In this document: positions 6,695-40,614 of the stretch, in pieces
How the letters are laid out: each line of letters opens with the position of its first letter
Numbering within the stretch: position 1 is the first letter of the stretch
From: Halomarina oriensis
Lineage (GTDB): Archaea > Halobacteriota > Halobacteria > Halobacteriales > Haloarculaceae
DNA: 64,000 bases
Assembly (NCBI RefSeq): GCF_009791395.1
Contig: NZ_WSZK01000030.1
Span: forward strand, 62,001-126,000
Direction of reading: 5' to 3'
Notes under the pieces: model-generated
Database searches by the model: none
What the model was told of the DNA's origin: nothing
What the model saw: only the letters and a program-made list of their open reading frames with translations
Made by a program: the position numbers and the translations under genes

Positions 6695-6701
6695 CGTACG
6701 C

Positions 6702-13228: not shown

Positions 13229-13485
13229 ACCGACTTGTCGTTCTTTCCTCCGGTAAAATCGGTACAGTAGTGTGAGCCGTTCTGAAGAATTGAGGTAAAG
13301 TAATTCACCGAAGGGCGATCTCGTACTCCCCACCTGATGAACCTTCACGGGTCTATCTGCTATTCACGCGAGTGTCGAGTCCGAGATGCTCAACGATTCG
13401 CGAATGCTTTTGATCTTTCCGAACTCATCTTACGACAGTAAGACACCACTCAGAACTGCGAGCGCGACCCATGTTTGTACCTTAA

Positions 13486-13504
13486 CCCTCGCATATCGCG
13501 AGGG
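13486..13504. repeat. 7-bp perfect inverted repeat in a 346-bp gene-free stretch (13229-13574)
   Basis: The arms are ccctcgc and gcgaggg around atatc. The rest of 13229-13574 shows nothing coding. The 12-mer atgtttgtacct just before this hairpin recurs at about 13921 in the next intergenic region, perhaps a dispersed element of the island. Confidence 0.5.
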
Positions 13505-13574
13505 ATGATGATGCTTCTGCTTACTATCGATACCAGTCGTAACTGACAGGGAAGAGCAGCAGAAAAATCGAGCA

Positions 13575-13805
13575 ATGAGACGATTTGAGGTCGGCGATCG
13601 GGTTCGAGTCGATATCCCAGATGAGGGTGATCCGGATCATAAACGTCTTCATGGAAAATGCGGTACCATCGTCGAAATATTCGAAGACGACGCTGGTCTA
13701 GAAACAGGAGATCCACGTGACTCGCATCTGTTCAGCGTTGAGATTGATGAAGGCTCAATCGAACACCTACGATGGAGAGACCTTCGACCTGCCTCAGATC
13801 CATAG
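13575..13805 (+). CDS. Small SH3-like protein (DUF8139-like)
   Basis: This 76-aa acidic protein begins MRRFEVGDRVRVDIPDEGDP and continues with HGKCGTIVEIFEDD, a KOW/SH3-type beta-barrel pattern (GDRVRV...GKxGTIVEI) seen in small haloarchaeal proteins of one conserved family (probably DUF8139). It ends with the conserved HLRWRDLRPASD phrase. It is monocistronic. The stop at 13805 is followed by 300 bases without a gene. Such proteins may bind nucleic acid or a partner protein, but there is no functional evidence here. Confidence 0.8.
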   Translation: MRRFEVGDRVRVDIPDEGDPDHKRLHGKCGTIVEIFEDDAGLETGDPRDSHLFSVEIDEGSIEHLRWRDLRPASDP

Positions 13806-14106
13806 TTGTCTGCGTCCATCTATCCGTAGGATTCTTCCCCACGATTGAGTTCGATACAGTCAACGGGCGGAAGGTATAGTGGCGCAATTTAGGTTTGAGT
13901 GCCATTTCTATGCAGAAAATATGTTTGTACCTCGCCCTCCTCCCTAATGATGGACGGCAAAATCGTCACGTAGTGGGATGCGTGGCGTGTCCCAATAGAC
14001 TTAGTCGTCCGCCCTGGGAGGCTTGGGAGTTGCCATCTTCCATCGGTGGTAATCGAGTCCTCCCCTTTCGAAAAGGTGAGTTTGTAACGACGCTGGATTT
14101 CTTGAG
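13806..14106. other. Gene-free stretch downstream of the effector operon
   Basis: Between a plus-strand small gene and the end of the minus-strand operon, no coding frame is credible. It would contain the 3' ends and terminators of both transcripts. A ttcgaaa segment near 14067 is the only short symmetric sequence I noticed. Confidence 0.5.
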
Positions 14107-24500: not shown

Positions 24501-27064
24501 CGGCTGAGTTCCTTCATGTCACGGTGGGAGTCCGCAAATGACAGGAGTTTGGCCGCCTGCTGCCCTTCGTCATCGGCGACTGCACGCAACAAGTACTGCG
24601 ATGTTGTCGCTGCGAGGTTGTTCGGACTCCGCATTAGTTCATCAAACCGCCGACCGATTTCGTATCGTGCGTATCGATGTGGACACGGTACTGCTATCGA
24701 CTGGTCGCTCATCGTGTGAATCCGACCCTGCGTGTCGAGGGTCTTGTATGCCTGATGGGAACCAATCCGGGGATGGACCTCCGGGTCATCGCAGTCGCAC
24801 CCTTCCGAACCCAGAAAGGCGGTGTCACACGCTTGGCAGTGCTGGTCTCGCTGGACTTCGAATAATCCCCGTTTCACAAACGACGTGCTACCGCAGTCAC
24901 AACGCTCGGGGGTTCCATCGAAATGAATACGGCCACATCCATCATTCGAACAGACCCATGGGACGTACTTGGTCGAGGTGAGTGCCGACCCACAGTCGCC
25001 GCAATTGTTCGGGACCTCGTCGGATTGCTCGTAGATTGTCCCACAATCGGGACAGTCGAATCGTCCGTCACTGGCAACAATCTCGAAGTCAGCCCCGGCA
25101 CAAGACTGGCACGTACGCTCGACTTGATGAGTGGATTCGCATGCTGGGTTAATACAAGAGAACGTATCGGAATCCGTTCTGACGGTTCGTGCCGTACAAT
25201 CGTCGCACTCGTGAGTAGTCGTTCGCTCTGTCGTCTGGCCACAGTCACGACATCGGAGGTAGGGCTGGAAAGTCGTCCGAACCATCTCAACCTCTTCTTC
25301 ACGAGCCGTCTCACAGCGCTTGCAGATATGCACCTCGTCCTGGCTGACGGACCCGTGTTCAGTAGGAGTGTAGGGTTCTAATTGGTCACACTCCGGACAG
25401 TACCACGCAATGAGGTGCTCGTCGCTACAATGCCGGCAGTAGGTTGCTCTGGTGATGAACTCGAACCCACACTCTCGACAGTCGTCTTGAGGAGACCGGT
25501 ATACAGCATCACAGGCGGGACACGTGTAGAATCCGTCGATTGGCCAAGAGAACACGTGACTCCGATTCTCCAAGATTCCTGAAAACTCCCCGAGAGTTCG
25601 CACGTTAGCGACCAACGTCTCAGCCTCGTCTTTGCCGAGGCTCAGGGCACTCGCGACCTTGTCGTGAAGTTGCTGCCGAGTCAAAGGGTCGTCGTATAAC
25701 AACTGGTGTACATACTGGACCACCTGAACACCGGGATCATCTCGCTCCTCCGTGAGGTGGTCAAAGAGGGCGTCGGCCACGAGCGCTTCTCGCCGGTCGC
25801 GATTGTATTGCGATGCGTTCTCCAAGGTGTAGTTGAACGACCCAACTCCAGGAATAGTGTCGTCAGGGTCTGCCGTGGCTTGGAGAATTCTATCGGTCGA
25901 TAGTGTCTCTCTGACTAACTGCTCTGGCACAGTAGAGGGCGTCACGTCGTCGAGTTCTCGTGGCGATTCACTCACCTGCGTGACGTCAATCGCGCCGCTC
26001 ACCTTCTGGAAGAGTTCGACATCATTCTCGACGGTCGCGCTACTCGCGATGAGTTGTAGATTGTTCGTCCCACGGGCTTTGCGCAACTTCTGCACCCGCT
26101 TCATCAACATCGAGGTGTAACTCCCGAACAGACCGTCATAGGTGTGGACTTCGTCAAACACGAGGAATTCGGGCTCATATATGAACCGCTCATGCTCGTC
26201 CTCCGCGTTAGTGTTGATGAGTCGGTAGTTGATTGTGTCCGGGTTCGTGAGCAGGATGTCGACCCCATTCTCGAGAATATCGTACTTTGTCAATCGGAGG
26301 AAGTCGAGTGGAACGTCGTTTGGAGTATCGTCCTCACAGTCGGCTTTTTCTGGAATCAGCTTGAATCGCGAACCCATGTTCCGAATCCGGACCCCACCAC
26401 CGCAGTCCTGACATTTCGACAATTCGTCATTGTATCCTGGACACTCGAAGTGCCGGAAGGTGGCATTGAGGTACCCTTCTGACCCAGACTCACTGACGTT
26501 ACGTGGGGTATCCCCGTCGTAGATTCCGACAGTAATCCGGTGTTTGGATTTCAGGTGCTTATTAATGAGGTAGAGATACTGTAGCAGTCGCTTGAGTTGG
26601 TCCTGAGCCAGCGCTTTTGTCGGGTAGATAAGCGTGGCTTTGACGCTGGTATCCTCCTCATCGTCACCACGACGTTTTGTCTCCAGAATTCGATTGAGGA
26701 TTGGTATGAGCCATGCCTCGGTTTTCCCCCGCCCCGTTGCGGCAGTAATGACGGTATCGTCGCCTTCGAGGATGGCTTCGATGCTTCGCTCCTGAAAGTC
26801 GTAGAGGCGCTCAAAGCCGATTTGTGAGAATGCACGCCGGATATGAGGTTCCAACTGCGACGACTGCGCGAATGTTTCCCATGACCGGTTGCTCCAGTTC
26901 GGGATATCGAGTGCTTGGAGGTACGGGCCACGCATACCGGAAATACCGTCCTCACCGTCGGCAAGCCTACTCTCGACGCTCCGTGCAGCACGTCCACCTC
27001 GACCGATGAAGTAATCGCGGTAGGCAGTCCGCATCTCTTCCGCACGGTTGACTGGATCGTCCAT
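21533..27064 (-). CDS. Giant DEVH-box helicase with zinc knuckles and MZB/DUF1998-type C-terminus (copy 2)
   Basis: This is an 1843-aa paralog of the following gene with the same architecture. Walker A (TAATGRGKTE) is at about 107-116. PTKALAQDQL, NPDTINYRL, VFDEVH and SSATVEND follow, then motif VI QRVGRAGRSS and NPIDYYYYDHPEKLI. A Cys-rich centre with numerous CxxC pairs precedes the terminal CDCENGCPSC...GC cluster. It starts 2 bases after the coiled-coil gene and ends 21 bases before copy 1. Bacterial Dpd islands carry one such large zinc-binding helicase (DpdJ is my best match), so duplication is a distinguishing trait here. The two copies have diverged strongly, so they probably form a heteromer or have separate tasks. 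Confidence 0.93.
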   Translation of the reverse strand: MDDPVNRAEEMRTAYRDYFIGRGGRAARSVESRLADGEDGISGMRGPYLQALDIPNWSNRSWETFAQSSQLEPHIRRAFSQIGFERLYDFQERSIEAILEGDDTVITAATGRGKTEAWLIPILNRILETKRRGDDEEDTSVKATLIYPTKALAQDQLKRLLQYLYLINKHLKSKHRITVGIYDGDTPRNVSESGSEGYLNATFRHFECPGYNDELSKCQDCGGGVRIRNMGSRFKLIPEKADCEDDTPNDVPLDFLRLTKYDILENGVDILLTNPDTINYRLINTNAEDEHERFIYEPEFLVFDEVHTYDGLFGSYTSMLMKRVQKLRKARGTNNLQLIASSATVENDVELFQKVSGAIDVTQVSESPRELDDVTPSTVPEQLVRETLSTDRILQATADPDDTIPGVGSFNYTLENASQYNRDRREALVADALFDHLTEERDDPGVQVVQYVHQLLYDDPLTRQQLHDKVASALSLGKDEAETLVANVRTLGEFSGILENRSHVFSWPIDGFYTCPACDAVYRSPQDDCRECGFEFITRATYCRHCSDEHLIAWYCPECDQLEPYTPTEHGSVSQDEVHICKRCETAREEEVEMVRTTFQPYLRCRDCGQTTERTTTHECDDCTARTVRTDSDTFSCINPACESTHQVERTCQSCAGADFEIVASDGRFDCPDCGTIYEQSDEVPNNCGDCGSALTSTKYVPWVCSNDGCGRIHFDGTPERCDCGSTSFVKRGLFEVQRDQHCQACDTAFLGSEGCDCDDPEVHPRIGSHQAYKTLDTQGRIHTMSDQSIAVPCPHRYARYEIGRRFDELMRSPNNLAATTSQYLLRAVADDEGQQAAKLLSFADSHRDMKELSRDFSEPEVETLLDQLLVGGATASDDETTWAPFDSVLKYANDAIENLNETLEPPRVAQNVEFDLKSRLKNQPRRRWDDDDSLRDRLTRRALPHVYSQRLGERDDPLSAVGLLDVRFAPGLDALSSDERTIVRDLIVEGNDYRVEKFNDPSADRSAEAVVAELVDREILGYGHSETYVSFAPSALSVTVAGDDDGIGFDPDSERYYTTLQRQFGLDSSETVPSGASLSERASSTHPRFTQRAHRIEYSGTRILISEEYLGTTDKRKRRELEFLFREENYPHHLSSGPTMELGVDIGALDALLLYGTPPNMNAYLQRVGRAGRSSHSSMVHSVSQRNPIDYYYYDHPEKLIDTDPTPVPLNEHNEEVLRVSLSWAIFDYVAAHFSIPWDVSHYGRAKSIDGGDTYHRRSMRDLDDREDASKLTHVMSITADTLSLGNDDSKLAVLGEAVDDHQSEVEDHLTALLDYQYCEDCERRYAATDDRTDCERSDCDGRVVYACDRFGHLVEEALIRFEDRYITHFREYEQSLEDELATLRRRNRKLRREMQRAGPDDRGRIMSERRGLMDRTDVLDDYLSELGRSSYFDFLRESRESKYDFSMRSVATTVGFTLVDEGYDRRAIGDQGSGRAMRMALSELHPGAAYLDGRETYTVARVRFDEKSGSDLREAVNGTVDEENHLAEELVCPACHSTFGLNTAECDCEANVPLKRRRLAVLNSVDAYYDNLQLTSDGDEARYLHDEPNLEVQNTYAERETAILNFEANRTFELQTDEGDCLGTLEYGDYSVLLSTDGYRTKYKSGEVDPRETLFEVCGEENCPGVIYKDGDDERRCSADPDHFPDGRGADSEFVRLGYRYDTQGVRINLDDHDLSHTLAHGLRVALQYLGGVTIRELAEHVGEDQVDIFESQEGGADVARLLFEQSGGEFRAFDRGVNLMREQFDCDCENGCPSCLYQYGCDVRNDQRSFDRDGLRPILEGRGLSIQPIENESVDEQLDE

Positions 27065-27922: not shown

Positions 27923-29527
27923 TTATAGTTCCTCCGTCATCGAGTGAATTTTCTGACGTTTTTGCTCGTAGTTGCTGTACTCGTCGAGTTGTTTGATACG
28001 GTGCTCGAGGTCAACTCCTGTGGCGTGTTCCTCGGCTTGTAAATCGCTAATCAGGCCGTCGAGGGCCTCATATACCTCCCAGGCTGCTTGTTCGTGACGG
28101 CTTCGTGCGAAGTCATGTAGCCGAGCAACCAGTGACACTCCTGTCGCATCGTCCATATTCTGGAACTGTTGGAGGTCATCTCGGAACGAAGACAGACCGA
28201 GATCTTTTGGGGAGGTGTCGTCCCCCCCGTTAATGCCGAGCAACTCGCGTGCCCGTTCGTAGGACTTCTTGTCGCTCACGTTCATCACGCCGCGACAGGC
28301 CTCTAACGTGTTAAACCAGTCTGCTAAATCCGAAGCCGTGTGGCTGCTGTCGTACCAGCGCTCGACCGGTTCGAGGGTTTCACTGATGTGTCCGGCGTCG
28401 TCGTCGACGGTGAGTCGCTGTAGTTCGGTCGCATAATCCGAGATACGGTCGAACAGAGTAGCGATTGTGGTGTTCGCCTGCTTTCGAGTAGTCCCGATTT
28501 TATACGCATCAGCGAGGTCGCCCGTGTCGATCATCATCGCGGCATCGATGTACTCTTCCAAGTCCTCTGCCATCATCTCGCGGGATTCTGATAGACGTTC
28601 GAAGTCTACGACATTCGATTTCAGGAGGAAGAAACCCTCCACGAGGTCGCCTATATCTCCTGAGGATAGCGTCAGATTTTCGAATGCTTCTCCGAACGCG
28701 CTGTCCGAGTCGAAATGATCGGCGAGGGCTCTCCCGTAGGCCTGATTACTATCGTACTCTTCGAAGACGACTTCCGTAGGGAGATTCCCGTCCTCAACTT
28801 CGTATCCGCGAGCGGCGTTCACTAGGAAAATTTGGGCCAGGACGAGGGTTTCTTCGATGGTGAGTTCCTCAGGGAGGCATGCCTCAATCTCCTCACGCAT
28901 TTTCTGTTTGAACTGAGCAACGTTAGTATCCGCCCACGCTCGGAGTTGATCGAAGTCTGTCGTTTCGGGGTCGAACACATCGAATAGACCGTACATCAGC
29001 ATCGAGGTGTACAGGTCGTTGTGTTTCACTCCCCACTCAAGTTCGACGTCGATGCTGGCCTGGCGTTGTTGGTCCCCCTGGATGGATACTGGAATGGTGT
29101 CACCGCTTGCGTAGTAGATGCTGCCAACCGACCGGGTTGAGGCGTTTGGATTTCCGAGTTGGGTGGGTTCGTGCCAACGCTCAAGTGCGGTGACCGCTCC
29201 TCTGTGAAGTGTGTCTGAACTGGGGTACTCTTCGCCGCTTGTCACCCAATCCTGAAACTCTTGGTACTTATGTTGACGCTCACGTTTCTCTTCGGAGAGT
29301 TCGGGGTCTTCGAGGACCTCTACTTCTTCTTCGACATCGGGTTCGTCGTCTCCTTCGCCTTCCTCATCTCCGTCACTCTCCTCTGTTCCATCAGCTGCCT
29401 CTTCTTCGTCGGGATCTTCAGTCTCGAGAGTTCGTTTGGGGGTCGGCGGGTTCTTGATTTTGCTCAGAACAGCGCTTCCTTTGCCTTTTTTTGAACACGA
29501 CGAAGCCGCCTTTGACGGTGACTTCAT
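27923..29527 (-). CDS. C-terminal part of split DpdH-like protein (helical, acidic linker)
   Basis: This frame encodes about 534 aa if read from an ATG at 29527. It begins inside the 3' end of the ATPase gene and has no sensible start of its own. Removing one base from the A7 tract (T7 at 29486-29492 on the plus strand) fuses the upstream frame ...GGFVVFKK directly to GKGSAVLSKIKNPPTPKRTL here. After a very acidic linker (Glu/Asp-rich, about 45 residues) comes a long helical domain. I read it as the second half of one protein of about 1033 aa. The alternatives are +1 frameshifting or two overlapping genes. Confidence 0.75.
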   Translation of the reverse strand: MKSPSKAASSCSKKGKGSAVLSKIKNPPTPKRTLETEDPDEEEAADGTEESDGDEEGEGDDEPDVEEEVEVLEDPELSEEKRERQHKYQEFQDWVTSGEEYPSSDTLHRGAVTALERWHEPTQLGNPNASTRSVGSIYYASGDTIPVSIQGDQQRQASIDVELEWGVKHNDLYTSMLMYGLFDVFDPETTDFDQLRAWADTNVAQFKQKMREEIEACLPEELTIEETLVLAQIFLVNAARGYEVEDGNLPTEVVFEEYDSNQAYGRALADHFDSDSAFGEAFENLTLSSGDIGDLVEGFFLLKSNVVDFERLSESREMMAEDLEEYIDAAMMIDTGDLADAYKIGTTRKQANTTIATLFDRISDYATELQRLTVDDDAGHISETLEPVERWYDSSHTASDLADWFNTLEACRGVMNVSDKKSYERARELLGINGGDDTSPKDLGLSSFRDDLQQFQNMDDATGVSLVARLHDFARSRHEQAAWEVYEALDGLISDLQAEEHATGVDLEHRIKQLDEYSNYEQKRQKIHSMTEEL

Positions 29528-31025
29528 TGTCGTCAGGGATGTCGATACCATACGTCTCGAAAACACCAACCCTAACGCCAATTCCACCTTCAACGGGGAC
29601 GCCGTACCACCGACTGACATCTCGATAAATCTGGTCGTACTTCATGTCGACCTCGAAGGTCGGCGTATCGACGAACGCGTTCGATTTCATCGCCTCGAAT
29701 GGAGGTCGAGTCGATTTGAGGCAGTGTTTCACCACTCGGAGGAGAAGCAATCGTGGCGTCTTTCGACTGCTCCCTTCGTCGTTCAACTGCCGGTAGGCGA
29801 CCTGAACGAATCGTTCGTTGAATGGGTACAGGCCATCGAACGCCTCCTCTACATCCTCTGGAACACCTTCTTCCCCCGAATTCCGCTTGATAGCATTCAG
29901 GTATGACCGGGCGAGCGCGATTGAGGCGTCGTCGTCAAGGAAGTACGCTTCTCCATCCTCATCGGTCATCGTGAGGAACCCCTCCGAACGACCTTTCATG
30001 TAGGTCGCCGCATCGCTCCGTGCGAATGCGTCGTCAATGTTGTCCTGCTCCCAGCCAATCGTCCACCCCAGGACGATATCGTAGCAACTACTACTGAGCT
30101 CGAAGATGTGGTCCAGTAGCTGTTCCTTCAAAACGCTAAACGTCGTGAGATCCTCGCAGATGAGCACCGGACGAATTCCTTGTTCCTGATACAACTCTGA
30201 ATACTCCTGAAGTTGCTCTTTGAAGTCCCCAACGAGGTTTCGTGAGAGATACTCGTGAGCCTCATTCTTGAGGACCGGGAAAAGTATGTCCCTGTCATCT
30301 GTGAGTTTGTCACTGAAGCTCAACTGGAGTCGAAGGCGGCGGTAGTCACTGCGCGTTAGCAGGTTGAAATCGGGATTTTCGTCTCGTGAGTCAAGGGCTT
30401 CTTGATATCCTTGAATATTCTTGGCGAAAATGTCTCGTAGATCACCGCTGTCGGCTCTTGCCTCGGTCAATTCTTGAACCTCAGCGTCAGTGAAGTGATC
30501 GGTCGACCAAATCCCACGCAGATACTCGACGATAGCACTTGCAGCATCATCGGGATTGAGATCGTCGATATTCCCGACGTCGGGATTGACATCCAAGGGT
30601 TCAGTCAGGACATCGACAATCTGGCCCATCCGTGTCTGGCTTCTGGAAACGTGTAGTGCGACGTAGTCCTCAATGCCGTCGTCGTTTTCGCCGTAGCCGT
30701 TGATCTGGTGCTTTGTCCACTCGCATAACTGGCTCTTGCCCGACCCGGGTTCACCTCTCAGGATGAAGATCCGGTTCGGATCGGTCAGATTGGAGGCAGT
30801 AATGGATTCCAGTACCTGCTCTTGGGTGACGAAGCCACCAGAGACGCCGAGTGGCGTCAACGTGTCCGCATAAATCCGGTCGATGTCGACGTGCGTCTCC
30901 CTGAACTGGTCGGGTGTCTTCTTCTTCGTGTGAGCTTCTGAGGTGATGAAGTGGTCGACTTGGTCGTCATCCCAGTAGCGGGGCATGTCGCCAAGTTCCG
31001 TTGGTGTAGAGGTTTGCTGACTCAT
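29418..31025 (-). CDS. P-loop ATPase, N-terminal part of split DpdH-like protein
   Basis: This is 535 aa from the ATG at 31025, which overlaps the stop of the preceding gene (ATGA). Walker A (GEPGSGKS) is at residues 91-98, and a Walker-B-like strand (PVLICEDLTTF) lies about 190 residues later. The rest is helical. The frame ends in an unnatural basic tail (KKRQRKRCSEQ...) right after an A7 run, and the natural continuation lies in the downstream frame. Joined, the ~1033-aa product matches the size and type of the large ATPase DpdH of bacterial Dpd islands. It is probably an energy-coupling or signalling subunit of the restriction complex. Confidence 0.86.
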   Translation of the reverse strand: MSQQTSTPTELGDMPRYWDDDQVDHFITSEAHTKKKTPDQFRETHVDIDRIYADTLTPLGVSGGFVTQEQVLESITASNLTDPNRIFILRGEPGSGKSQLCEWTKHQINGYGENDDGIEDYVALHVSRSQTRMGQIVDVLTEPLDVNPDVGNIDDLNPDDAASAIVEYLRGIWSTDHFTDAEVQELTEARADSGDLRDIFAKNIQGYQEALDSRDENPDFNLLTRSDYRRLRLQLSFSDKLTDDRDILFPVLKNEAHEYLSRNLVGDFKEQLQEYSELYQEQGIRPVLICEDLTTFSVLKEQLLDHIFELSSSCYDIVLGWTIGWEQDNIDDAFARSDAATYMKGRSEGFLTMTDEDGEAYFLDDDASIALARSYLNAIKRNSGEEGVPEDVEEAFDGLYPFNERFVQVAYRQLNDEGSSRKTPRLLLLRVVKHCLKSTRPPFEAMKSNAFVDTPTFEVDMKYDQIYRDVSRWYGVPVEGGIGVRVGVFETYGIDIPDDNEVTVKGGFVVFKKRQRKRCSEQNQEPADPQTNSRD

Positions 31026-31948
31026 TGGTGGATGAGGAACTGATTTAGCGGGTACTGGTACGCCGTTTCGTCCGGACACGAGTGAATCGAGACGTGGGTC
31101 ACGCTTCGTCGGTTCCCACGGCGGTCTTCACCGAGGTTCGGGGGCGGCAGTTTCACTTCATTTTTCGCGTCACCCGGAGCGGACAACGATAGAACCCCGC
31201 CGTCCTCCATGTTACGTAGTACGTCAGCTATTGCGGGGTGTACCCGCAGTGCGCCGGACCGTTTCAGATAGACTGTGAATAGATTCTCGTGAATCCAGTC
31301 AAGAATGTGCCTGAACTCTCCATCTTCGATTGAACCAGTATCATACCCGACTTCCGCGTCCGAATTTGCTGGTGCCAAGCTGAACGCGCAGTACATCAGT
31401 GCTCGACAGGGACTCATGACGATTCCGTCATCTGTCTCAGAGATGAGGCCCAAGCCCTCACACAGCGTTACCCACATGTCGATTTTCTCGTTGGTCCAAC
31501 TGAAGTCGTAGTCCGTCTCACGCTTTAAGATGGTCCGAACGTCGTCACGGTCAGCACTGACGACCCTACGCTCCTCGCTCATCAGAGCATGATGGAGGTC
31601 AGTAAAGTGTTGCTGGCGACCTTTCTGCTGGTTACAGTGGTACAGCAGGCGAGCCTCAAAAGGAAGTCCCTCGAAATGGTCTTCATTGATTTTCTGGACT
31701 GTATCTCTGATATCGCCGCTAGGGCTTTCAGCTAGGTCAACGGCGTTGAGGAATCGTATCGTCTCCTCGATGTGTTCCGTCTTGATTCCGTCGCTGGTTG
31801 GGCGGCCAAACTTGCTCGTGATTTCAGAGACGCTGGTTGGCCCCTGAAGTGAGCCGTAAATATGTTTGAGTTCTGGTGCCCGAACCGAGATAAACCCGGT
31901 GAGTAACTTGTCCGGCTTGTTGCTTGCCGATGTGTATGTGCTGCTCAT
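31022..31948 (-). CDS. Winged-helix-type protein of the effector operon (DpdG position)
   Basis: This 308-aa protein starts at the ATG at 31948, which overlaps the preceding gene's stop. The N-terminal region (SVRAPELKHIYGSLQGPTS) and a later PTSVSEITSKFGRPTSDGIK resemble winged-helix modules. A second helical bundle follows, and the C-terminus is beta-rich, ending THVSIHS...PLNQFLIHQ. It has no catalytic motif. Directly upstream of the large ATPase, it occupies the place that DpdG holds relative to DpdH in bacteria. That correspondence is inferred from order and size only. Confidence 0.82.
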   Translation of the reverse strand: MSSTYTSASNKPDKLLTGFISVRAPELKHIYGSLQGPTSVSEITSKFGRPTSDGIKTEHIEETIRFLNAVDLAESPSGDIRDTVQKINEDHFEGLPFEARLLYHCNQQKGRQQHFTDLHHALMSEERRVVSADRDDVRTILKRETDYDFSWTNEKIDMWVTLCEGLGLISETDDGIVMSPCRALMYCAFSLAPANSDAEVGYDTGSIEDGEFRHILDWIHENLFTVYLKRSGALRVHPAIADVLRNMEDGGVLSLSAPGDAKNEVKLPPPNLGEDRRGNRRSVTHVSIHSCPDETAYQYPLNQFLIHQ

Positions 31949-32811
31949 ATGTCCCCCTGATGGCGGTAGCGGTAGTTGTCGAGCCGTGGTTCTTCGAATT
32001 CGATCAACTCGAGCATGTCGAGCATACGATTGGCGACCTGCTGGGTTGGACCACGTTCGGTCCATGACCGAAGCGCTTCTCTGATTCGCTCTGAGTAATC
32101 CTCGAGTACGTTATCGACGTCCTCACGAATGAGGTAGTAGAGCGGCTCCCATGCCGGACTGTCGGCCGGAATCTTGGTGTAGTCGAACAACTTTGGGATA
32201 GACCCGGCATCCAGACCTGCTGCCTTGTGATGAGCAGATACATTGTGGAAATACAGGTTCTGCGTCGTTGACAACGAGAGGTCTGTCTCGAAGTTGTACT
32301 GTAGATACTGCTTCAGCAGTGCTTTGTGGTCGACAACCGTGCACTCGAACTCGTCGACGAACGATTTCCCCGGCTTTTTCGTGTGCCTTGGCATCATAGG
32401 GGTATTCGTGTCCGTGACGAGTACGTAGGGTACCCCCTCTGGCCGAATTCGAAGTAATTGGCGGACGATGTCCTGATCGTCATAGGTCCGATTTTCATCT
32501 TGGAGTTCACCGGTCAGCATCTCTTGGCTGACGTAGTGAACAAGTGGAAACGCAACGTCTCCGACACCATTCTCTCGTAGAGACTCATTCGCGGTCATCT
32601 CGTACTCGACGAGTCGCAATCCGTTATCGTAGATTCCGGGATGTGCGACTGCTTCGAGGCCGAACTTTGTCAGCAACGGGAGTGACCTGAGTTGTGCGCG
32701 GGCCTGTGTTCCTGACTTGGCGAGTTGTGGATCTTGAACTACGAGGAACGAATCTCGCGTTCCGATGAACTCTGCTAATGTCGGTCGGTGAGTATCGGGG
32801 GGGTCTGTCAT
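31945..32811 (-). CDS. First gene of the effector operon, unknown
   Basis: This is 288 aa from the ATG at 32811 (MTDPPDTHRPTLAEF). The longer upstream frame is unlikely. The N-terminal half looks alpha/beta (SFLVVQDPQLAKSGTQARAQ; RIRPEGVPYVLVTDTNTPMM), with a conserved-looking Asp-Thr-Asn in VTDTNT. The C-terminal half is helical. I do not recognise the family, and a nuclease or signalling role cannot be argued from motifs. It leads the 18.7-kb operon ending at 14107, all of whose genes overlap or are separated by at most 21 bases, and it is transcribed divergently from the CARF regulator. Confidence 0.82.
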   Translation of the reverse strand: MTDPPDTHRPTLAEFIGTRDSFLVVQDPQLAKSGTQARAQLRSLPLLTKFGLEAVAHPGIYDNGLRLVEYEMTANESLRENGVGDVAFPLVHYVSQEMLTGELQDENRTYDDQDIVRQLLRIRPEGVPYVLVTDTNTPMMPRHTKKPGKSFVDEFECTVVDHKALLKQYLQYNFETDLSLSTTQNLYFHNVSAHHKAAGLDAGSIPKLFDYTKIPADSPAWEPLYYLIREDVDNVLEDYSERIREALRSWTERGPTQQVANRMLDMLELIEFEEPRLDNYRYRHQGDI

Positions 32812-33254
32812 CGTTTGTGGCTTGGGAGTTTGCGTGGCGCCGGGGTGGGATGGACGCCCAGTCGAACACATCTGAATCCATAGCAGTAGCTACGGGCCGA
32901 ATCGACCATTTCTGGCCACCTCGAGTGGGATGCTGTCGTATACCGCTCATGTTGCACGTTGCTTAAACCTATCGTGTAGGCGACATTATCGTGGTCGGAG
33001 ATATGGCTCTTCGCCCTGACAGAGTCACCCACCAGAGTCAAGTGTGCGAACGATTGGCAGTTTCATTGGCACGATTATATATCTATCGTGAGTGAAACAA
33101 CTCCGGCTTGTTTGCATTAATTCGATACAATTCGAGACGTGATTGTTCATAATCGGATTGTCTGAGTGAATGCAAGCCCGATTGTATGCCAAAACCGTGC
33201 TGTCTGTTGCACTATTTCGGAACAGTAAGGGTCCTCGAACTGTGTGAAATGGGT
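32812..33254. promoter_or_regulatory. Divergent control region between effector operon and CARF regulator
   Basis: This 443-bp AT-rich intergenic region lies between divergent genes. A tatata-containing segment (about 33076-33084) could be a TATA box. An imperfect inverted repeat, ggcttg(ttt)gcatt at 33105-33118 and aatgcaagcc at 33169-33178, brackets a run with two copies of the hexamer attcga/ttcgag. This arrangement suits binding by the neighbouring HTH regulator. No coding frame in it looks real. Confidence 0.5.
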
Positions 33255-33908
33255 ATGCGCACCTATCTCGCACCGCTTGGTTTCGACAGTCGGCGTGTAG
33301 TGCGCCCTGTTCTAAGTGAAGGACTTGAACCTAGTGACTGCGTCTTGTTGCTTCAACCCGCTACTGGGTCTAAGCGCGGAGACGACGCGCATGACGAAGT
33401 GAAAGATGTTCTTACACAGGTGGTTGAAAATCTTGATTTGAATGTAGAGACATTACCGTACTCGGATTTTGTGGAGACAACCTTGAACTGTGTCGACCTC
33501 ATTCAGGAGTCCGAAGGCGAAACCATTGTCATCCTCGGCGGGGGTGCTCGAGAGATCCTCCTGCCACTCACCGTTGCGACATTCACCAGTGTTGATAGCA
33601 TAGACACAATCCTTCAAGTGGGGGATATCGACAGTAGCGTTCGACGGATTCCCCAATTGAATCTCCGAGGGAACGTCTCGGATGCCGAAACCGAACTACT
33701 GAGCAACCTTGACCAATTACCGACATCACTTTCGATCAGCCAGATTGCAAACGAGTTGGACAAGTCGAAGAGCACAATCACTCGCCACGTCAATAGTTTG
33801 GAATCGGAGGGTTTCGTCTCGGCCAAGAAAGAAGGGAGATCGAAGCATGTCTCGATAACCGATAGCGGGCGTGTGTTCCTGAAGACACGACGAGTATCGA
33901 AATTTTGA
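33255..33908 (+). CDS. CARF-HTH transcriptional regulator, Csa3-like
   Basis: This is 217 aa with a Csa3 layout. The N-terminal CARF domain opens with TYLAPLGFDSRRVVRPVLSE, the Csa3 pattern of a strand ending PLGFD. GETIVILGGGAREILLPL follows, the glycine-rich ligand loop of CARF proteins, near residues 95-115. A winged helix (LSISQIANELDKSKSTITRH...VNSLESEGFV) lies at about 150-215. CARF domains sense cyclic oligoadenylates or related ligands. Csa3 normally controls CRISPR-cas genes, but no cas gene or array is present here. It sits between the TGT operon and the effector operon, facing away from the latter. The ATG at 33255 gives the canonical N-terminus, and the ATG at 33249 is also possible. 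Confidence 0.88.
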   Translation: MRTYLAPLGFDSRRVVRPVLSEGLEPSDCVLLLQPATGSKRGDDAHDEVKDVLTQVVENLDLNVETLPYSDFVETTLNCVDLIQESEGETIVILGGGAREILLPLTVATFTSVDSIDTILQVGDIDSSVRRIPQLNLRGNVSDAETELLSNLDQLPTSLSISQIANELDKSKSTITRHVNSLESEGFVSAKKEGRSKHVSITDSGRVFLKTRRVSKF

Positions 33909-34465: not shown

Positions 34466-35623
34466 TTATAAACTCCTCTGAACGATTTCTGTTGTGATTT
34501 CTGCTTCATCGGCCTCTGTTGCCGAGTCTAGCACCCGACTACAGACGGCGAGAATTTGCCGAATGTTCCCCTGTGCTCGTTGTAAGATGACCTCAAGACT
34601 TTCTTCGGTGAACGGGTGTATCGTGTTCCCAGTTGGTTGGTCAATGCGTTCACGGGCCAAATAATCTGCAATCAAGTCCGTGAGATGCTCTGCAGTCAAC
34701 GGTCGAAGGGCGACCTCCTGACCGATACGCTCGCTGAACGCATGGTACTCACTCATCACGTCCTGCCACACCTCTGGAGCGCATCCAAAGAGCATACACA
34801 GTCCATCAGCATTCTGATCCATCAGATGACGGATACTGTTGAGTGTTGTCTGCTCGTCTTTCGGGGAGAGGCGTGCGATACTTTCGAACTCATCCACGAA
34901 GACGAACACCGCGGTATAGCCGAGTTCGAGTAGCGTATTCTTGAGCGCCGTGAACGCGCGGACGCCCATCGTATCGTCGTCAAGTGCGCTGTGAATCTCC
35001 ATCTCCTTGCGCTGCTCGTAGCGAATGCCCTCTGCAGTGAGCCATTGCCACGCGTATAGGTTGGTGTCTTCGTAGACCAAATGGACGAGTGCACGGGCGA
35101 AGTCTGCGAACTTGGTCACGTCACTGAGCCGCCGAATTGCTTCCGGGATAATTTCGGACAGCAACACGTCTCCGCCGTCAATGAGGGCTTTCATTGCGGT
35201 CGCATCCTCTGGGTATGAATTCGTTTCGTCACGTGCGACGTCTGCGAGAAATTCGTAGGCAATTGTCTGCAGGCGCTCGAATCCAAGGTCGTAGACGAAC
35301 TCGTGATAGATATCGACGAACCCTTCGCCGGGCTGGGCGACGTAGCCTACGATCACATCGTCACGTTCGCGTAGCAACGACCGAGTGTACTTCAGGGTGT
35401 GCGACTTCCCGTTTCCGTACTTTCCAGTCACGACGAGGTGCTTGGATTTCCCCGTCGCGAGCACCGACGAAACGGTCGAACTGATAACCCGTGATACGTG
35501 CTGTTGGCCACAGTAGAGTTCAGGATCTTCGGCTGGGACCGGACTATATGGGAATGGATTACCGGCTAGGTCGTACCGGGAGTAATCGCGCTGCTCATCG
35601 CTGATGGTGAAGGTGTTCGTCAT
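34466..35623 (-). CDS. ORC/Cdc6-like AAA+ ATPase of the TGT operon
   Basis: This is a 385-aa AAA+ protein. Residues about 15-45 contain LAGNPFPYSPVPAEDPELYCGQ-like features of ORC/STAND-type ATPases. Walker A (GKYGNGKS) is at 67-74, Walker B (VFVFVDEFES) near 238, a sensor-1-like region is GLCMLFGCAPE, and a C-terminal lid ends with NIRQILAVCSRVLDSA. It overlaps the winged-helix gene upstream by 4 bases, so both are coupled to the small TGT gene. Similar DNA-binding ATPases act in BREX and related defence systems, but no BREX partner is present. Loading the transglycosylases onto DNA is a plausible job. Confidence 0.85.
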   Translation of the reverse strand: MTNTFTISDEQRDYSRYDLAGNPFPYSPVPAEDPELYCGQQHVSRVISSTVSSVLATGKSKHLVVTGKYGNGKSHTLKYTRSLLRERDDVIVGYVAQPGEGFVDIYHEFVYDLGFERLQTIAYEFLADVARDETNSYPEDATAMKALIDGGDVLLSEIIPEAIRRLSDVTKFADFARALVHLVYEDTNLYAWQWLTAEGIRYEQRKEMEIHSALDDDTMGVRAFTALKNTLLELGYTAVFVFVDEFESIARLSPKDEQTTLNSIRHLMDQNADGLCMLFGCAPEVWQDVMSEYHAFSERIGQEVALRPLTAEHLTDLIADYLARERIDQPTGNTIHPFTEESLEVILQRAQGNIRQILAVCSRVLDSATEADEAEITTEIVQRSL

Positions 35624-36516
35624 TGTGCTGGATTGTAACTGAGTTCGCGGTCGTGGACTGCGAGGTAGTAATACCGTTTGTCGTACAGTTCAACGCCGGC
35701 AAGGACCTGCTCGGTGGACTGTGAGGTCGAAACGAGGTCGTTGTTGTCAGCGCGGGTGATCTGTTTGATACCGAGAGCAGCGTCTTTCGCGGCTGTGTCG
35801 ATTGGAGCCCCTGAGAGTTCGAGTCGGCCAACGTTCTGCTGAGCGACAGCGACGACGGCGTCGTCGAATGCCATGCGGGGACACCCGACCCGTTCGCACA
35901 GATGTTCACGAAGTTTCGGAATCGCGAGATACCGTTGCCGCAGTGCGACGCCGGCCGTCTCCTCCAAGTCGTCGAACACTGCGAGCAGAAGGTAGACGAA
36001 GTTTCCCGGTACTTCTGCTTGAGTCACGGGATAGTACGTCCCAGTGAATGCGTTTCGCTGGATTCGCCCCAGTCGTTCCCCCCAGTCACCGAGCACCTCG
36101 ATACTCGTCTGGTTGTATGTGCGGCCGGTGTGTGCTTCTCGGTCGGCAAGTTCGTCTAGGACGGTTGCTTGGTCTGCCGGTGCGACCGAATCTAGTGCCG
36201 TCAAGAACGCACCGTAGTGGGGGCTTCGCGCTTCGAGGATGTCACTGACTCTTAACCAGTCCTCCGCTCGGATACCTTTCAGAAACTCGTGGCCAACACG
36301 GGTCGTCATGAACCACGACTCTTCATCGTCAGCAGGAGTATGCTCGGCGATGAGACCGATTCGAAGAGCCTCAAGGATGGTTGTCCGGGCCCGTCGACGA
36401 CTGACGCCTGTTGCCTCTTTGAATTCATCTGTCGTTCGACTCGTTCCTTCACACAGGTGAGTCGCCTCGGTCAGACGAGCGAGCGTCACCGGACGAACCG
36501 TTGGACGCTCGCTCAT
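35620..36516 (-). CDS. Winged-helix protein coupled to the AAA ATPase, unknown
   Basis: This is 298 aa. The N-terminus (about residues 10-60) reads as a winged helix (LARLTEATHLCEGTSRTTDE; SRRRARTTILEALRIGLIAE). The rest is helical with a beta-rich C-terminus (ELYDKRYYYLAVHDRELSYN). Its start overlaps the stop of the small TGT gene and its stop overlaps the start of the AAA ATPase gene (both 4 bases), so the three are produced as a unit. It may be a DNA-recognition subunit for the transglycosylase or the ATPase. Confidence 0.82.
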   Translation of the reverse strand: MSERPTVRPVTLARLTEATHLCEGTSRTTDEFKEATGVSRRRARTTILEALRIGLIAEHTPADDEESWFMTTRVGHEFLKGIRAEDWLRVSDILEARSPHYGAFLTALDSVAPADQATVLDELADREAHTGRTYNQTSIEVLGDWGERLGRIQRNAFTGTYYPVTQAEVPGNFVYLLLAVFDDLEETAGVALRQRYLAIPKLREHLCERVGCPRMAFDDAVVAVAQQNVGRLELSGAPIDTAAKDAALGIKQITRADNNDLVSTSQSTEQVLAGVELYDKRYYYLAVHDRELSYNPAQ

Positions 36517-37547
36517 GCAAGCCTCCGAACTTGCTGTTTCGCCATATTGTACGCGCGTTTCGTGACCTCGTTGCCCTCGAATCGTAGATCAAGATACGTT
36601 TCGACGTCGCGACCCGACTCTGCAATATACTGGAACCGGCGGAGTTCGGTCGCCAGTGCCCAGAGGTTGTGCCGCGTGAGTGCTGTCCGGTCCTCTCGGA
36701 TATCGTCGAGACTCCGCTGCCCGCAAATCGGACAGGGACAAGGGAGTCGCTCGAGGTTCTCAATGTCGCGTAACTCTTCGCGACCAAATCCTGGTATGAG
36801 GTAGTTTCGATGGCTGGCACCACGGATGAACGAAGACGAGTCGAAGCTATCGACGCCGAGATACAACAATAGGGAGAGGTATGCACATCCGCCTAGACCG
36901 TAGACGTGGAGCGGTTTTTCGGTCGCCGTGCGGGCGGCCAGAATTAGTTTTGTTACCTTTCGATAGTCCGTACGAATCGGCACCATGCTGCCGAGGGCGT
37001 AGCCATCAAACGTCCCTCGTCGCTCTAAGTAGCGGATACTGTTCCGAATCGTCTCTGGATCATACCCGTGGATGCTTGCGAAAAGAAGCGCATCGTCGTC
37101 GTGTCGATCGCTCGCCTCCAACGCATATTGGATACTCTGTTCGATCCGACGCTGGTTCTCTGCTGCTCTTTTTTCTCTCGATAGAGGAAGATCAACGGTC
37201 CCGTAGACATCTGCTTCCAACTGCCTTTGAGTATCTAGCGTCCGTTCTGGTGTCGTATCGACTTCTTTAGAGGCGAAGTCAAATCCTCCACTGTCTGCGA
37301 AGACGATGGTGTCGTCTGGAACTCCCATCTCTTCTCGGAGTGACCGGCCGCCGGTCAATCGCTCCCACATCGGGGTTCGGTTTCGTATCGATCGCGTGTT
37401 TATCATCGCAACTGGGAAGTCTGGAATCGATTCGACATACTCTGGGGTGTTGTCACTCGACCGTTTGCCAATATTCCGAACGGGGAAGAGGACTGGTGTG
37501 TCGAGTGTCCCGTGGGGAAGATCGAGTGTTCGTCGTCTATACAGCAT
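36513..37547 (-). CDS. dpdA: TGT-family DNA guanine transglycosylase, DpdA-like (minimal)
   Basis: This 344-aa protein has the fold of tRNA-guanine transglycosylases. FADSGGF at 83-89 carries the base-pocket Asp, SIHG at 158-161 replaces VQGG, and DGYALGS at 181-187 replaces DGYAIGG. SFDSSS at 234-239 carries the probable nucleophile Asp236, and a zinc site is at C270, C272, C275 and H293. No tRNA-binding PUA domain is attached. TGT paralogs in this setting (DpdA, earlier TgtA5) put preQ0 into DNA. The ATG at 37547 gives MLYRRRTLDL, while an upstream GTG at 37577 would add ten residues. It lies about 97 bases downstream of the larger paralog and overlaps the winged-helix gene. The alternative is an RNA-modifying TGT. 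Confidence 0.82.
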   Translation of the reverse strand: MLYRRRTLDLPHGTLDTPVLFPVRNIGKRSSDNTPEYVESIPDFPVAMINTRSIRNRTPMWERLTGGRSLREEMGVPDDTIVFADSGGFDFASKEVDTTPERTLDTQRQLEADVYGTVDLPLSREKRAAENQRRIEQSIQYALEASDRHDDDALLFASIHGYDPETIRNSIRYLERRGTFDGYALGSMVPIRTDYRKVTKLILAARTATEKPLHVYGLGGCAYLSLLLYLGVDSFDSSSFIRGASHRNYLIPGFGREELRDIENLERLPCPCPICGQRSLDDIREDRTALTRHNLWALATELRRFQYIAESGRDVETYLDLRFEGNEVTKRAYNMAKQQVRRLA

Positions 37548-37644
37548 ACCACCCGCTCCGATTATCTGCCATATCACATAGATAATTGGTCAGTAGACGG
37601 CTCTCTCAAAAAACAAATAACGAAATCGCCGATATCCAGCGAAT

Positions 37645-40614
37645 CTACTCATTGTTGACGCCGTTGAGCCGTTTCTGAGTCGGTTCCTCATCTAATCGCC
37701 GACAGAGTTCTTCGATCAAATCGGGAGTCAGCACGTCTACTTCACCGATGCGCCGTGAGAAATTCTTCATATACAACCCTTTCAGGCCGACGACAATCGT
37801 ACCGTGCTCTTTCGCGTCGTCAGTCCGAGCCGGAACCGAAACGATGTTTTCGAACTGCCCATCGACAAGTTCGCGGTTGAATACAACGCCGATACGGTCT
37901 GCGGGAACCTGCTGAACCATCTCGTCGATATCGATACTCGTGTAGTAGTCCTTCCCGAGAGTGAAAAAGACTACATCGTAGTCGGACTCTGCAAGTAATT
38001 GCTCGACATCGGACTGGATGTTGAGTTGCTCCGAACGAAAGCGTATCTCGCTGACGTTCATCGAACTGAACGTCACCTCGTATGGTGGAAGTCGGTCGTC
38101 GGAGGAGACGAGTCCAAACCCGGCACTGATGAAGTGGCGATCGACTGTGTGCCCCTCGTTTTTGAGTCGCCTGACGGCCTCGGTGACGTACTTTTGCTGA
38201 CGGCCTGTGTAGAGATCGCCCGCTGCGATCTCTGGCGCGTATGGGTGTCCCAACAGATGCTCACGCGACTGGTGGAGTGTCTCGTCTGCATCGAAGACCC
38301 GGGCGTCGTTGGGTATCTCCTTTGACCCGGAACACTGGTCGATGACGAGGATGTTCAGTCCGTCCTCGGTCGCAAGTTCTGGCGCATGCGGGAGGAAATC
38401 ATCACCGGCGACGTAGTTTCTGCCACAGGTCGACAACGCCTCCACTCGGAGTTTCGCTGCGTCATCAAACGTGTGGAGAGTGCAGGAACTCCCTTCCACA
38501 GCATCGACGATGGCATCATCGAGATTCGCTTCTAGAGTGTGGACGAAGAGGTGCTGGTACCGTGTTGTCTGTCGCCCCAAGCCGTCTGCTGTCGAGTCGA
38601 GGTCGAACGAGTTGCCACTCGGCGTTTCATCCCACCACTCGTGGACTCCCTCTTCAGTGAGCACACCGACTTCAGCGACTGGTAGATCATGGACCTGTTC
38701 CCAGAACGCTGAGTGCTCGCTCCGAAGGTATTCTTCGACAGTTTCGTACTGGTCAAGTCGATCTGTCCCCTGAGTCGCGATGAGTATCTTCGGGAGACTC
38801 TCCGCGAACTCATTGTAGAACTGATGAGTATTGTGGAACCCACGCCGCCGGTTCCGATCGTTTCCACGGAAGATGCAGACCTCGACACCATGCTCGTCGC
38901 AAATCGGACAGTCACACTGCTCCCATGGGCGAGCCTTGAGCGTACGTTGGTACTCCTCTAACAGGTCGTCATCCCCGATGTACCTCGCGTACTCACTGAT
39001 GATGGTCCATATCTGGTCGTAGGAATCTTCCTGCTCGTCGAGCATCGATGCGATTCGAGGGACCGACTCGAACTGCTCTTCAGCGACTGTCAAGAGTTCG
39101 TCATACTCTTCAATTGGGACTGAGCTTTCTGGGTCGTCCTTTCGGAGAAGTTTGACGAGTTTGTTACGGAGTTCGCCACTGAAGTACGCCTGCAACGCCC
39201 GAGCTTGCTCGAACGCAACAGTGGTCTCGTCTGCATCGTTACCATCTCTGAATGCAGTCTCAACGTCTTGAAGAAGCGATTCGTCGAACTGGCTGGCATG
39301 GCGGTGCTCTTGTAGATACTCTCGCGTTGCGGGAAGGACCGTTTCCGCCTCATTCTCCCACTCATCGAGCGCGTCGATGATTGACTCCTCCTCGGCATAC
39401 GCACGGAGTGCAACGAGCGCTTCTCGCCCACGAACCGTCTTTTTGACAGCGGTCGCAAGGTCGTCTCGACTTGAAGGATACCGAACGCGAATCGCGTCGT
39501 AACGTTCCTCAGCAGTCAGGCGGTAGTTCCGTCCACCCGTCCAGGCAGACCGGAGCATGCTCGCACTGTCGAAACTCGCCATTCCAGAACGGCCAATCGT
39601 CTCGAACGCGTCTGTCTTCGCGAACCCGAACACGTGAGGGTCGACACGAGTGGCGTGCTCACGCTCGAACTGGGTGATCGTTCGTCCGACCGCCTTGACG
39701 ATCTTCCGTACATTGTGGATCGGACTTCCTGCGACGCCACCGATTCCCAAGTAGTCATAACCGGTGTCGAGAACCTGCTCGGCGGCTTCGACGTACGACC
39801 ATGGGGTCCATCCCTGGATGGCAACCATTAGACGGAACGGGTAGTCCCCCTCCTCGTAGAGGTCGTACATCTCCGCGGCGTTGCGGAGGGTGAGGTCGTA
39901 TCGGAACTGCTTGTCGTCCGATCGATACACTGCTCGCGAGTCGGTCTCTAATCTCGAGAGGACAGAGTCGACATCGCCCGCGAAGGTTTCGGCGGTGAAC
40001 AGGTCGATCGCCTCATCGGACTCGGTACAGATCGTTGGTTCGTACTCCATAACGTAGGGGGGCCACTCAGAGGGCCACTCATCGATCATCAAATCGACGA
40101 CGTCAGTCAACTGTTCTGGGAGGTCCTTCTTGGAGAATCCATCCCCGAACGCTCGACTGTCTAGATAGAGGCGTCCCTTGTCCTTTCCAGACCCGAGGAC
40201 GAGATGGTCGATGGTGACGCCGATATCGACCCCGAGCGTCTCGTAAAACTCCAACATCTCTTGGTTGCCGTACGGCGGGAATGGAAGCGACTTGTAGCCC
40301 CACGCCCCACAGTCACTAATCGTTGGCATCCACTCGGGGATCGAGAGTGCCGGTTCATCAACGGAGGAATCAGACGGTTCGCCGTTTCCGTGGACACCAT
40401 ATTCTTTGAGTCGACGAGCCTTGCGGTCCGTCTCCTCAACCTGTTCACGCGAGATGAGCACCCCATCAATCGGTGTTTGCTCCTCTGGATCCTCGAAAAC
40501 ATCCCAGATATAATCCAGCGTCCGCTCCTCGCGGTCGAGTTCAGAGAGTTCGTCAAACTCGAAATCATATCCCGCATCAACCGCGTCGTCCCACTCAGGA
40601 ACGTAGAACCTCAC
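37645..40614 (-). CDS. TGT-family transglycosylase fused to a DUF6884-like domain, DpdA-like
   Basis: This is a 989-aa protein. Residues about 95-370 form a divergent TGT barrel: ISDCGAW at 99-105 (for SDSGGF), VAIQGW at 264-269, YLGIGGVAGS at 288-297 and ASFDSAS at 346-352 with likely nucleophile Asp349. A helical region follows, then a zinc site C567, C569, C572 and H594. A further alpha/beta domain, about 755-890, contains LNILVIDQCSGSKEIPN and HFISAGFGLVSSDDRLPPYE. This pattern (CSGSK...SAGFGLV) is typical of DUF6884-like proteins linked to 7-deazaguanine enzymes. It is the first large gene of operon A. Possible roles are base insertion into DNA or further processing of the inserted base. 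Confidence 0.85.
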   Translation of the reverse strand: MRFYVPEWDDAVDAGYDFEFDELSELDREERTLDYIWDVFEDPEEQTPIDGVLISREQVEETDRKARRLKEYGVHGNGEPSDSSVDEPALSIPEWMPTISDCGAWGYKSLPFPPYGNQEMLEFYETLGVDIGVTIDHLVLGSGKDKGRLYLDSRAFGDGFSKKDLPEQLTDVVDLMIDEWPSEWPPYVMEYEPTICTESDEAIDLFTAETFAGDVDSVLSRLETDSRAVYRSDDKQFRYDLTLRNAAEMYDLYEEGDYPFRLMVAIQGWTPWSYVEAAEQVLDTGYDYLGIGGVAGSPIHNVRKIVKAVGRTITQFEREHATRVDPHVFGFAKTDAFETIGRSGMASFDSASMLRSAWTGGRNYRLTAEERYDAIRVRYPSSRDDLATAVKKTVRGREALVALRAYAEEESIIDALDEWENEAETVLPATREYLQEHRHASQFDESLLQDVETAFRDGNDADETTVAFEQARALQAYFSGELRNKLVKLLRKDDPESSVPIEEYDELLTVAEEQFESVPRIASMLDEQEDSYDQIWTIISEYARYIGDDDLLEEYQRTLKARPWEQCDCPICDEHGVEVCIFRGNDRNRRRGFHNTHQFYNEFAESLPKILIATQGTDRLDQYETVEEYLRSEHSAFWEQVHDLPVAEVGVLTEEGVHEWWDETPSGNSFDLDSTADGLGRQTTRYQHLFVHTLEANLDDAIVDAVEGSSCTLHTFDDAAKLRVEALSTCGRNYVAGDDFLPHAPELATEDGLNILVIDQCSGSKEIPNDARVFDADETLHQSREHLLGHPYAPEIAAGDLYTGRQQKYVTEAVRRLKNEGHTVDRHFISAGFGLVSSDDRLPPYEVTFSSMNVSEIRFRSEQLNIQSDVEQLLAESDYDVVFFTLGKDYYTSIDIDEMVQQVPADRIGVVFNRELVDGQFENIVSVPARTDDAKEHGTIVVGLKGLYMKNFSRRIGEVDVLTPDLIEELCRRLDEEPTQKRLNGVNNE

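What the first reader, a model, noticed from the sequence alone, without database searches (positions are those of the whole stretch)
36513..40614. Two TGT paralogs side by side, one fused to a DUF6884-like domain
Both proteins keep a candidate nucleophile Asp (D236 of the small one, D349 of the large one) and a CxCxxC...H zinc site, so neither looks dead, but their base pockets differ (ADSGGF against SDCGAW). Two active enzymes could modify different sequence contexts, or one could insert and the other exchange or process the base. The ~230-aa C-terminal domain of the large one (CSGSK...SAGFGLV) could be a further base-modifying or amidohydrolase-like step that replaces DpdC.
Basis: partly seen in the sequence, partly recalled or inferred. 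Interest (0 to 1): 0.72.

Follow-up and report, generated by a model that had tools for sequence, protein, structure and literature searches.

The report
Archaeal DNA-marking island with two transglycosylases
A salt-loving archaeon carries a self/non-self DNA-marking island that always pairs a DpdA-DpdC base-swapping enzyme with a second, different base-swapping enzyme; the island type was described in 2025, but the fusion and the obligatory second enzyme appear to be new details worth testing.

Summary
Window 36.5-40.6 kb (haloarchaeon, low-GC island) encodes two TGT-fold proteins, each with an intact active site. The large one is DpdA, and its C-terminal domain is not a replacement for DpdC but DpdC (DUF6884) itself, fused: in about 21 other haloarchaeal genomes the same protein is split into DpdA and an adjacent DpdC gene, and in Bacillota and cyanobacteria DpdC sits at the N-terminus. 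The small one is not a close paralog: it forms its own clade outside DpdA, nearest to archaeosine TGTs, in a 4-nt-overlapping unit with a 298-aa conserved protein and a BrxD-like ATPase. Large and small co-occur in 55 of 391 Halobacteria genomes with one discordant genome each way (p=6e-65), even where they lie apart. The surroundings (two YprA/DruE-like helicases, DpdH-like protein, PLD protein) match BRIGADE, a Dpd-like defence class reported only in haloarchaea (2025 preprint). Unrelated second TGTs also stand beside DpdA in Paenibacillus, cyanobacteria and Chloroflexi, almost never with DpdB, though this exclusion is not significant after phylogenetic correction. Best reading: DpdA-C inserts preQ0 and converts it to ADG; the second TGT unit is a required second inserter or targeting partner, possibly in DpdB's place.

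The parts
38380..40614 (-). DpdA (DNA-guanine transglycosylase) part of the large protein, aa 1-745; catalytic D101, D136, D349; Zn ligands C567/C569/C572/H594
   Evidence: NCBIfam DpdA over cut-off; PDB 7ui4; residues invariant in 40-41 of 41 orthologs; inside the DpdA clade
37648..38379 (-). [quoted passage not shown] invariant C16 and K20 of the domain (CSGSK), PYEVTF motif
   Evidence: PADLOC DpdC; Pfam DUF6884 29.3 bits, just under cut-off 30; split gene in about 21 relatives; N-terminal fusion in bacteria; AlphaFold model pLDDT 88, best PDB fold YaaA/DUF328
36513..37547 (-). second TGT ('small'), start at the conserved Met11 of the longest ORF (ORF to 37577); D95, D129, D246 and C280/C282/C285/H303 in ORF numbering
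   Evidence: Pfam TGT; invariant in 36/36 orthologs; own clade outside DpdA; model TM 0.83 to ArcTGT 1j2b
35620..36516 (-). 298-aa conserved partner, probably winged-helix (inference), overlapping small by 4 nt
   Evidence: no family hit; conserved next to small TGT in all complete loci, also where DpdA is elsewhere
34466..35623 (-). BrxC/BrxD-like AAA ATPase, overlapping the 298-aa gene by 4 nt
   Evidence: Pfam BrxC_BrxD 54 bits over 22; conserved third gene of the unit
33186..33908 (+). Csa3/CARF-type regulator conserved beside the system
   Evidence: Pfam Csa3_N, PADLOC CARF3; present in several related loci
31945..32871 (-). 308-aa protein of the restriction half
   Evidence: syntenic in L057, L065, L068, L072
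31022..32065 (-). 347-aa protein of the restriction half; weakly matches the protein after the second TGT in Paenibacillus
27923..31079 (-). DpdH-like ATPase, frameshifted into 553 + 565 aa at a run of seven A
   Evidence: NCBIfam/PADLOC DpdH weak; single 1014-1047 aa ORF in L065 and L068
27067..27921 (-). 284-aa helical protein of the restriction half
   Evidence: syntenic in relatives
21533..27064 (-). YprA-type helicase 1 (1843 aa; DruE/DpdJ-like)
16055..21511 (-). YprA-type helicase 2 (1818 aa; DruE/DpdJ-like), 38% identical to helicase 1
14107..16062 (-). PLD-family predicted nuclease (651 aa)
   Evidence: Pfam PLDc_2, PADLOC DrmC

Best explanation
This is the DNA-marking half of a haloarchaeal Dpd-like restriction-modification island of the BRIGADE class. 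Shown from sequence: the large protein is a DpdA-DpdC fusion and the small one is a second TGT with an intact active site, always present with it. Inferred: host-made preQ0 is swapped for guanine in DNA by the DpdA part, and the fused DpdC part hydrates the nitrile to give ADG in the DNA. The second TGT works with its coupled 298-aa partner and BrxD-like ATPase as an ATP-driven, site-directing second guanine exchanger, for example for the other strand or another motif, in the slot that DpdB fills in classical Dpd islands. The marked DNA is then spared by the helicase/PLD half.
For: DpdA and DpdC assignments; fused, split and N-terminal architectures. 55 of 391 genomes carry both TGTs, one discordant genome each way, p=6e-65. 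Catalytic residues invariant in both. Small TGT, 298-aa protein and AAA stay together even when DpdA is inverted, kilobases away or on another contig; their genes overlap by 4 nt. No DpdB above cut-off in 391 genomes. Second TGTs of other clades occur beside DpdA in Bacillota, cyanobacteria and Chloroflexi: 23 with TGT only, 25 with DpdB only, 1 with both. The helicase occurs in 37 genomes, all of which carry the module. Own QueC, hence probably preQ0; related plasmid with queC/folE/queE/queD beside the module.
Against: No measurement of a modified base exists for any member that I could find. The exclusion of DpdB by the second TGT is not significant on independent phylogenetic pairs, because few are informative, and 31 DpdA loci have neither. 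The BrxD-like ATPase and 298-aa protein are absent from the bacterial two-TGT loci. Two haloarchaeal loci hold a weak DGQHR protein. The cyanobacterial-type second TGTs lack zinc ligands, so second TGTs need not all act alike. The window's DpdH-like gene is frameshifted, so its restriction half may be inactive here.
Confidence: 0.55

Rival explanations
1. Small and large form one heteromeric transglycosylase, like QTRT1/QTRT2: only one active site does the chemistry and the other subunit orients the DNA.
For: Near-perfect co-occurrence; TGTs work as dimers and the eukaryotic enzyme is a heterodimer (own knowledge).
Against: Both keep every catalytic and zinc residue in all orthologs, unlike QTRT2, which lost catalytic residues (own knowledge). 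The small TGT is coupled to the 298-aa protein and AAA rather than to DpdA. They belong to different clades.
Confidence: 0.22
2. The small TGT unit belongs to restriction: it senses unmodified guanines with its TGT fold and ATPase and passes the DNA to the helicases.
For: BrxD-like ATPases belong to defence complexes; coupling with an ATPase.
Against: The unit is also kept in module genomes without the YprA-type helicase, 19 of 56; the full active site is conserved.
Confidence: 0.1
3. The small TGT is a tRNA-modifying enzyme that happens to lie in the island.
For: Its best NCBIfam model is TgtA, 136 bits but far under the cut-off of 350.
Against: The 344-aa protein has no room for the C-terminal and PUA domains of arcTGT; the genome has its own TgtA and ArcS; it occurs only with DpdA.
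Confidence: 0.06
4. One reading: one TGT inserts a base and the other exchanges or processes it, with the C-terminal domain a new step that replaces DpdC.
For: Two active sites and an extra domain are present.
Against: The extra domain is DpdC itself; exchange out of 7-deazaguanine is considered irreversible (own knowledge).
Confidence: 0.05

Closest known systems
BRIGADE systems (Bell et al. 2025 preprint, PMC12458937)
   Same: Halophilic archaea only; Dpd-like 7-deazaguanine genes; two YprA-like helicases; PLD or PD-(D/E)xK nuclease.
   Different: The passages of the main text that I read do not mention two TGTs, the DpdA-DpdC fusion or the TGT/298-aa/BrxD-like unit; its supplement could not be read. 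The two helicases here are 38% identical, whereas Type II is described as having two nearly identical ones.
Bacterial Dpd islands (dpdA-dpdK; PMC11888242, PMC12839542)
   Same: DpdA, DpdC (DUF6884), DpdH-like ATPase, DpdJ-like helicase, PLD protein.
   Different: No DpdB; DpdC fused to DpdA; second TGT; two YprA helicases; BrxD-like ATPase.
Two-TGT DpdA loci of Paenibacillus, cyanobacteria and Chloroflexi (found here; L082, L083, L085, L093-L104, L144)
   Same: DpdA together with a second, non-DpdA TGT, no DpdB; mostly with DpdC fused.
   Different: Second TGT from other clades; DpdC at the N-terminus; no BrxD-like ATPase or 298-aa partner.
BREX-Related Capture systems (PMC12839542)
   Same: TGT together with a BREX-like ATPase in a defence locus.
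   Different: Centred on PglZ, HerA/FtsK and GNAT; not seen in this island.
Archaeosine TGT (TgtA)
   Same: Closest characterised relative of the small TGT by sequence and fold.
   Different: The small TGT lacks the tRNA-binding C-terminal domains and scores far below the TgtA cut-off.

Membership tests
DpdA (large protein, N-terminal part) | NCBIfam NF041059 score above the cut-off | tested here: met
   276.4 bits over 200
DpdA (large protein, N-terminal part) | TGT catalytic Asp pair and CxCxxC...H zinc site | tested here: met
   invariant in 40-41 of 41 orthologs, aligned with 7ui4
DpdA (large protein, N-terminal part) | Inserts preQ0 into DNA | not testable with these tools
   needs LC-MS of DNA
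DpdC (C-terminal domain) | Homology to DpdC/DUF6884 | tested here: met
   PADLOC DpdC E 3e-8; DUF6884 29.3 bits against cut-off 30, narrowly below; split gene in relatives
DpdC (C-terminal domain) | Hydrolyses dPreQ0 to dADG | not testable with these tools
   needs an assay
DpdA (small TGT) | NCBIfam NF041059 score above the cut-off | tested here: not met
   38 bits against 200; outside the DpdA clade
TgtA, archaeosine tRNA TGT (small TGT) | TIGR00432 score above the cut-off and C-terminal tRNA-binding domains | tested here: not met
   136 against 350 bits; catalytic domain only (344 aa)
BRIGADE | Occurs in halophilic archaea | tested here: met
   module and helicase found across class Halobacteria
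BRIGADE | Two YprA-like helicases, at least one ARMADA-like | tested here: met
   two helicases with DruE and DpdJ as best defence models; placement in the ARMADA-like branch itself was not tested by a tree
BRIGADE | Type II: two nearly identical YprA helicases | tested here: inconclusive
   both closest to DruE, but only 38% identical to each other
BRIGADE | Dpd-like 7-deazaguanine genes and a PLD or PD-(D/E)xK nuclease | tested here: met
Bacterial Dpd island | DpdB present | tested here: not met
   none in the own genome; none above cut-off in 391 Halobacteria genomes

The most novel reading that the evidence does not exclude
Dpd-type DNA marking has a second, DpdB-less form in which an additional TGT, recruited several times independently from unrelated TGT clades, is an obligatory partner of DpdA-DpdC, so that two transglycosylases mark one genome, for example one per strand or per motif.
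Probability: 0.35. Interest if true: 0.75.

Novelty: new variant of a known kind. Interest (0 to 1): 0.58.

Why it matters
How DpdA finds its sites in double-stranded DNA and why DpdB is needed is, as far as the readable papers show, unresolved. Natural systems in which a second TGT with its own ATPase and partner protein stands where DpdB is missing, and in which DpdC is physically fused to DpdA, give a simple way in: delete or inactivate each active site in a genetically tractable haloarchaeon and map the marks.

Tried and rejected
Small TGT as a recent duplicate of the large one: rejected by the tree. Small TGT as a viral DpdA: no phage record covers more than 74% of it and none exceeds 27% identity; nothing in the viral contigs. 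The ATPase/298-aa pair as the universal DpdB substitute: absent from bacterial two-TGT loci. Strict DpdB/second-TGT exclusion as a proven rule: p=1.8e-4 on raw counts but not on independent pairs. Attachment-site repeat for the tRNA-Thr end of the island: none found. Original Dpd papers (PMC10164549, PMC4801273) are not held. No paper on two-TGT systems found.

Full report
1. Setting. The window lies in a haloarchaeal genome (G000, contig 24). Between a tRNA-Thr (6702-6776) and about 42 kb the GC content falls from 65-69% to 49-57%, as in an acquired island. From 40.6 kb down to 14.1 kb nearly all genes lie on the - strand.

2. The two proteins. Large (37645-40614): curated DpdA model 276 bits over 200; the only PDB hit is 7ui4, a DNA-guanine transglycosylase. 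Small (36513-37577): Pfam TGT 109 bits, best curated model TgtA but well below its cut-off, best PDB hit archaeosine TGT 1iq8. An AlphaFold model (pLDDT 78, built on distant homologs only) matches ArcTGT 1j2b at TM 0.83. Active-site Asp residues and zinc ligands are invariant across orthologs in both, so neither looks dead. In a 58-sequence tree the large one sits inside the DpdA clade (SH-aLRT 99). The small one forms its own clade (100) outside it, near archaeal TGTs; deep branches are long and their order is uncertain.

3. The C-terminal domain is DpdC. It matches PADLOC DpdC models and DUF6884 just below the Pfam cut-off; published work assigns DUF6884 to DpdC (PMC11888242). In about 21 other haloarchaeal genomes the protein is split into a roughly 735-aa DpdA and an adjacent roughly 250-aa DpdC. 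In Paenibacillus and cyanobacteria the same domain is fused at the N-terminus of DpdA. A predicted model of the domain (pLDDT 88) has YaaA (DUF328) as its only significant PDB match, with modest TM 0.42; another paper names DpdC as DUF328 (PMC12839542). Invariant Cys and Lys of CxGxK suggest covalent nitrile chemistry (inference).

4. The pair is obligatory. In 391 Halobacteria genomes the large protein occurs in 56 and the small in 56, both together in 55 (p=6e-65; one of the 56, G131, has only a weak, 566-aa DpdA). The exceptions are a contig end (G165) and a remnant with an in-frame stop (G034). In 42 genomes they are adjacent in tandem, in 3 more in tandem 2-6 kb apart. In ten they are inverted, displaced or on different contigs, and in those re-read the small TGT stays joined to the 298-aa protein and the BrxD-like ATPase. 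In the window these three genes overlap by 4 nt each, whereas about 97 nt separate the large gene from the conserved start of the small one. So there are two linked units: DpdA(-DpdC), and TGT2/298-aa/AAA.

5. The system. The island also has two large helicases with DruE and DpdJ as best defence models, a DpdH-like ATPase and a PLD protein. The first helicase is found in 37 of 391 genomes, every one of which has the module. This matches BRIGADE, described in a 2025 preprint as Dpd-like systems exclusive to halophilic archaea with two YprA helicases and a PLD or PD-(D/E)xK nuclease (PMC12458937). The subtype is uncertain. About a third of module genomes lack this helicase; one named plasmid has the module beside preQ0 genes and a PD-(D/E)xK protein. 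The system as such is therefore already described; the parts of its main text that I read do not mention the second TGT or the fusion, and its supplement could not be read.

6. Second TGTs elsewhere. A genome-collection scan with an alignment of DpdA gave 80 loci. HMM classification found a second, non-DpdA TGT near DpdA in Paenibacillaceae, Bacillus, cyanobacteria, Chloroflexi, an acidobacterium and Anaeromyxobacter, in at least two further TGT clades; one Paenibacillus has a Bacillota-type DpdA with a cyanobacterial-type second TGT (L102). Counts over 80 loci with usable context (this set plus plasmid records): second TGT only 23, DpdB only 25, both 1, neither 31. Haloarchaea have no DpdB above cut-off. 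After phylogenetic pairing the exclusion is not significant, so 'the second TGT replaces DpdB' is a hypothesis, not a result.

7. Mechanism. Shown: homology, intact active sites, obligatory pairing, unit structure. Inferred: preQ0 insertion and conversion to ADG by DpdA-C, preQ0 from the host pathway (QueC present), and a second exchange or targeting role for TGT2 with its ATPase. Nothing here measures a modified base.

8. Verdict. The new content is the obligatory, recurrent two-TGT arrangement.

Noticed in passing
window 27923-31079: The DpdH-like gene is split by a frameshift at a run of seven A (near 29.46 kb); relatives L065 and L068 have one 1014-1047 aa ORF. Either the gene is broken here or it is an assembly error.
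   Followed up: partly
window 33186-33908: A Csa3/CARF-type regulator on the opposite strand is conserved beside the system in several genomes, hinting at nucleotide-signal control of a Dpd-like island.
   Followed up: partly
window 6702-42000: Low-GC island starting at a tRNA-Thr; no flanking direct repeat of the tRNA end was found.
   Followed up: partly
L086 (Halorientalis litorea plasmid) 2537-19140: The same marking module lies beside preQ0 genes (queC, folE, queE, queD) and a different restriction half with a PD-(D/E)XK protein, so marking modules and effectors are exchanged.
   Followed up: no
L082, L083, L084, L104, L108: Cyanobacterial-type second TGTs keep the catalytic Asp residues but, where aligned (L082-L084), lack the zinc-site cysteines; in Nostoc MS1 (L084) one occurs without DpdA nearby.
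   Followed up: partly
L102 16994-18037: Paenibacillus tyrfis pairs a Bacillota-type DpdC-DpdA with a cyanobacterial-type second TGT, suggesting swapping in a conserved slot.
   Followed up: partly
L175 3956-8655 and L176 4133-6735: A Haladaptatus plasmid carries two further TGT/ArcS-like proteins, and a Natrinema plasmid a TGT followed directly by an ATPase: other TGT loci of unknown role.
   Followed up: no
L072 5375-6841 and L037 13536-14951: Weak DGQHR (DpdB/DndB-type) proteins lie near the module in two genomes of one genus.
   Followed up: partly
L127 12042-13064: A cyanobacterium has DpdC-DpdA, DpdB and a divergent short DpdA-like protein together, the only locus with both kinds of partner.
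   Followed up: no
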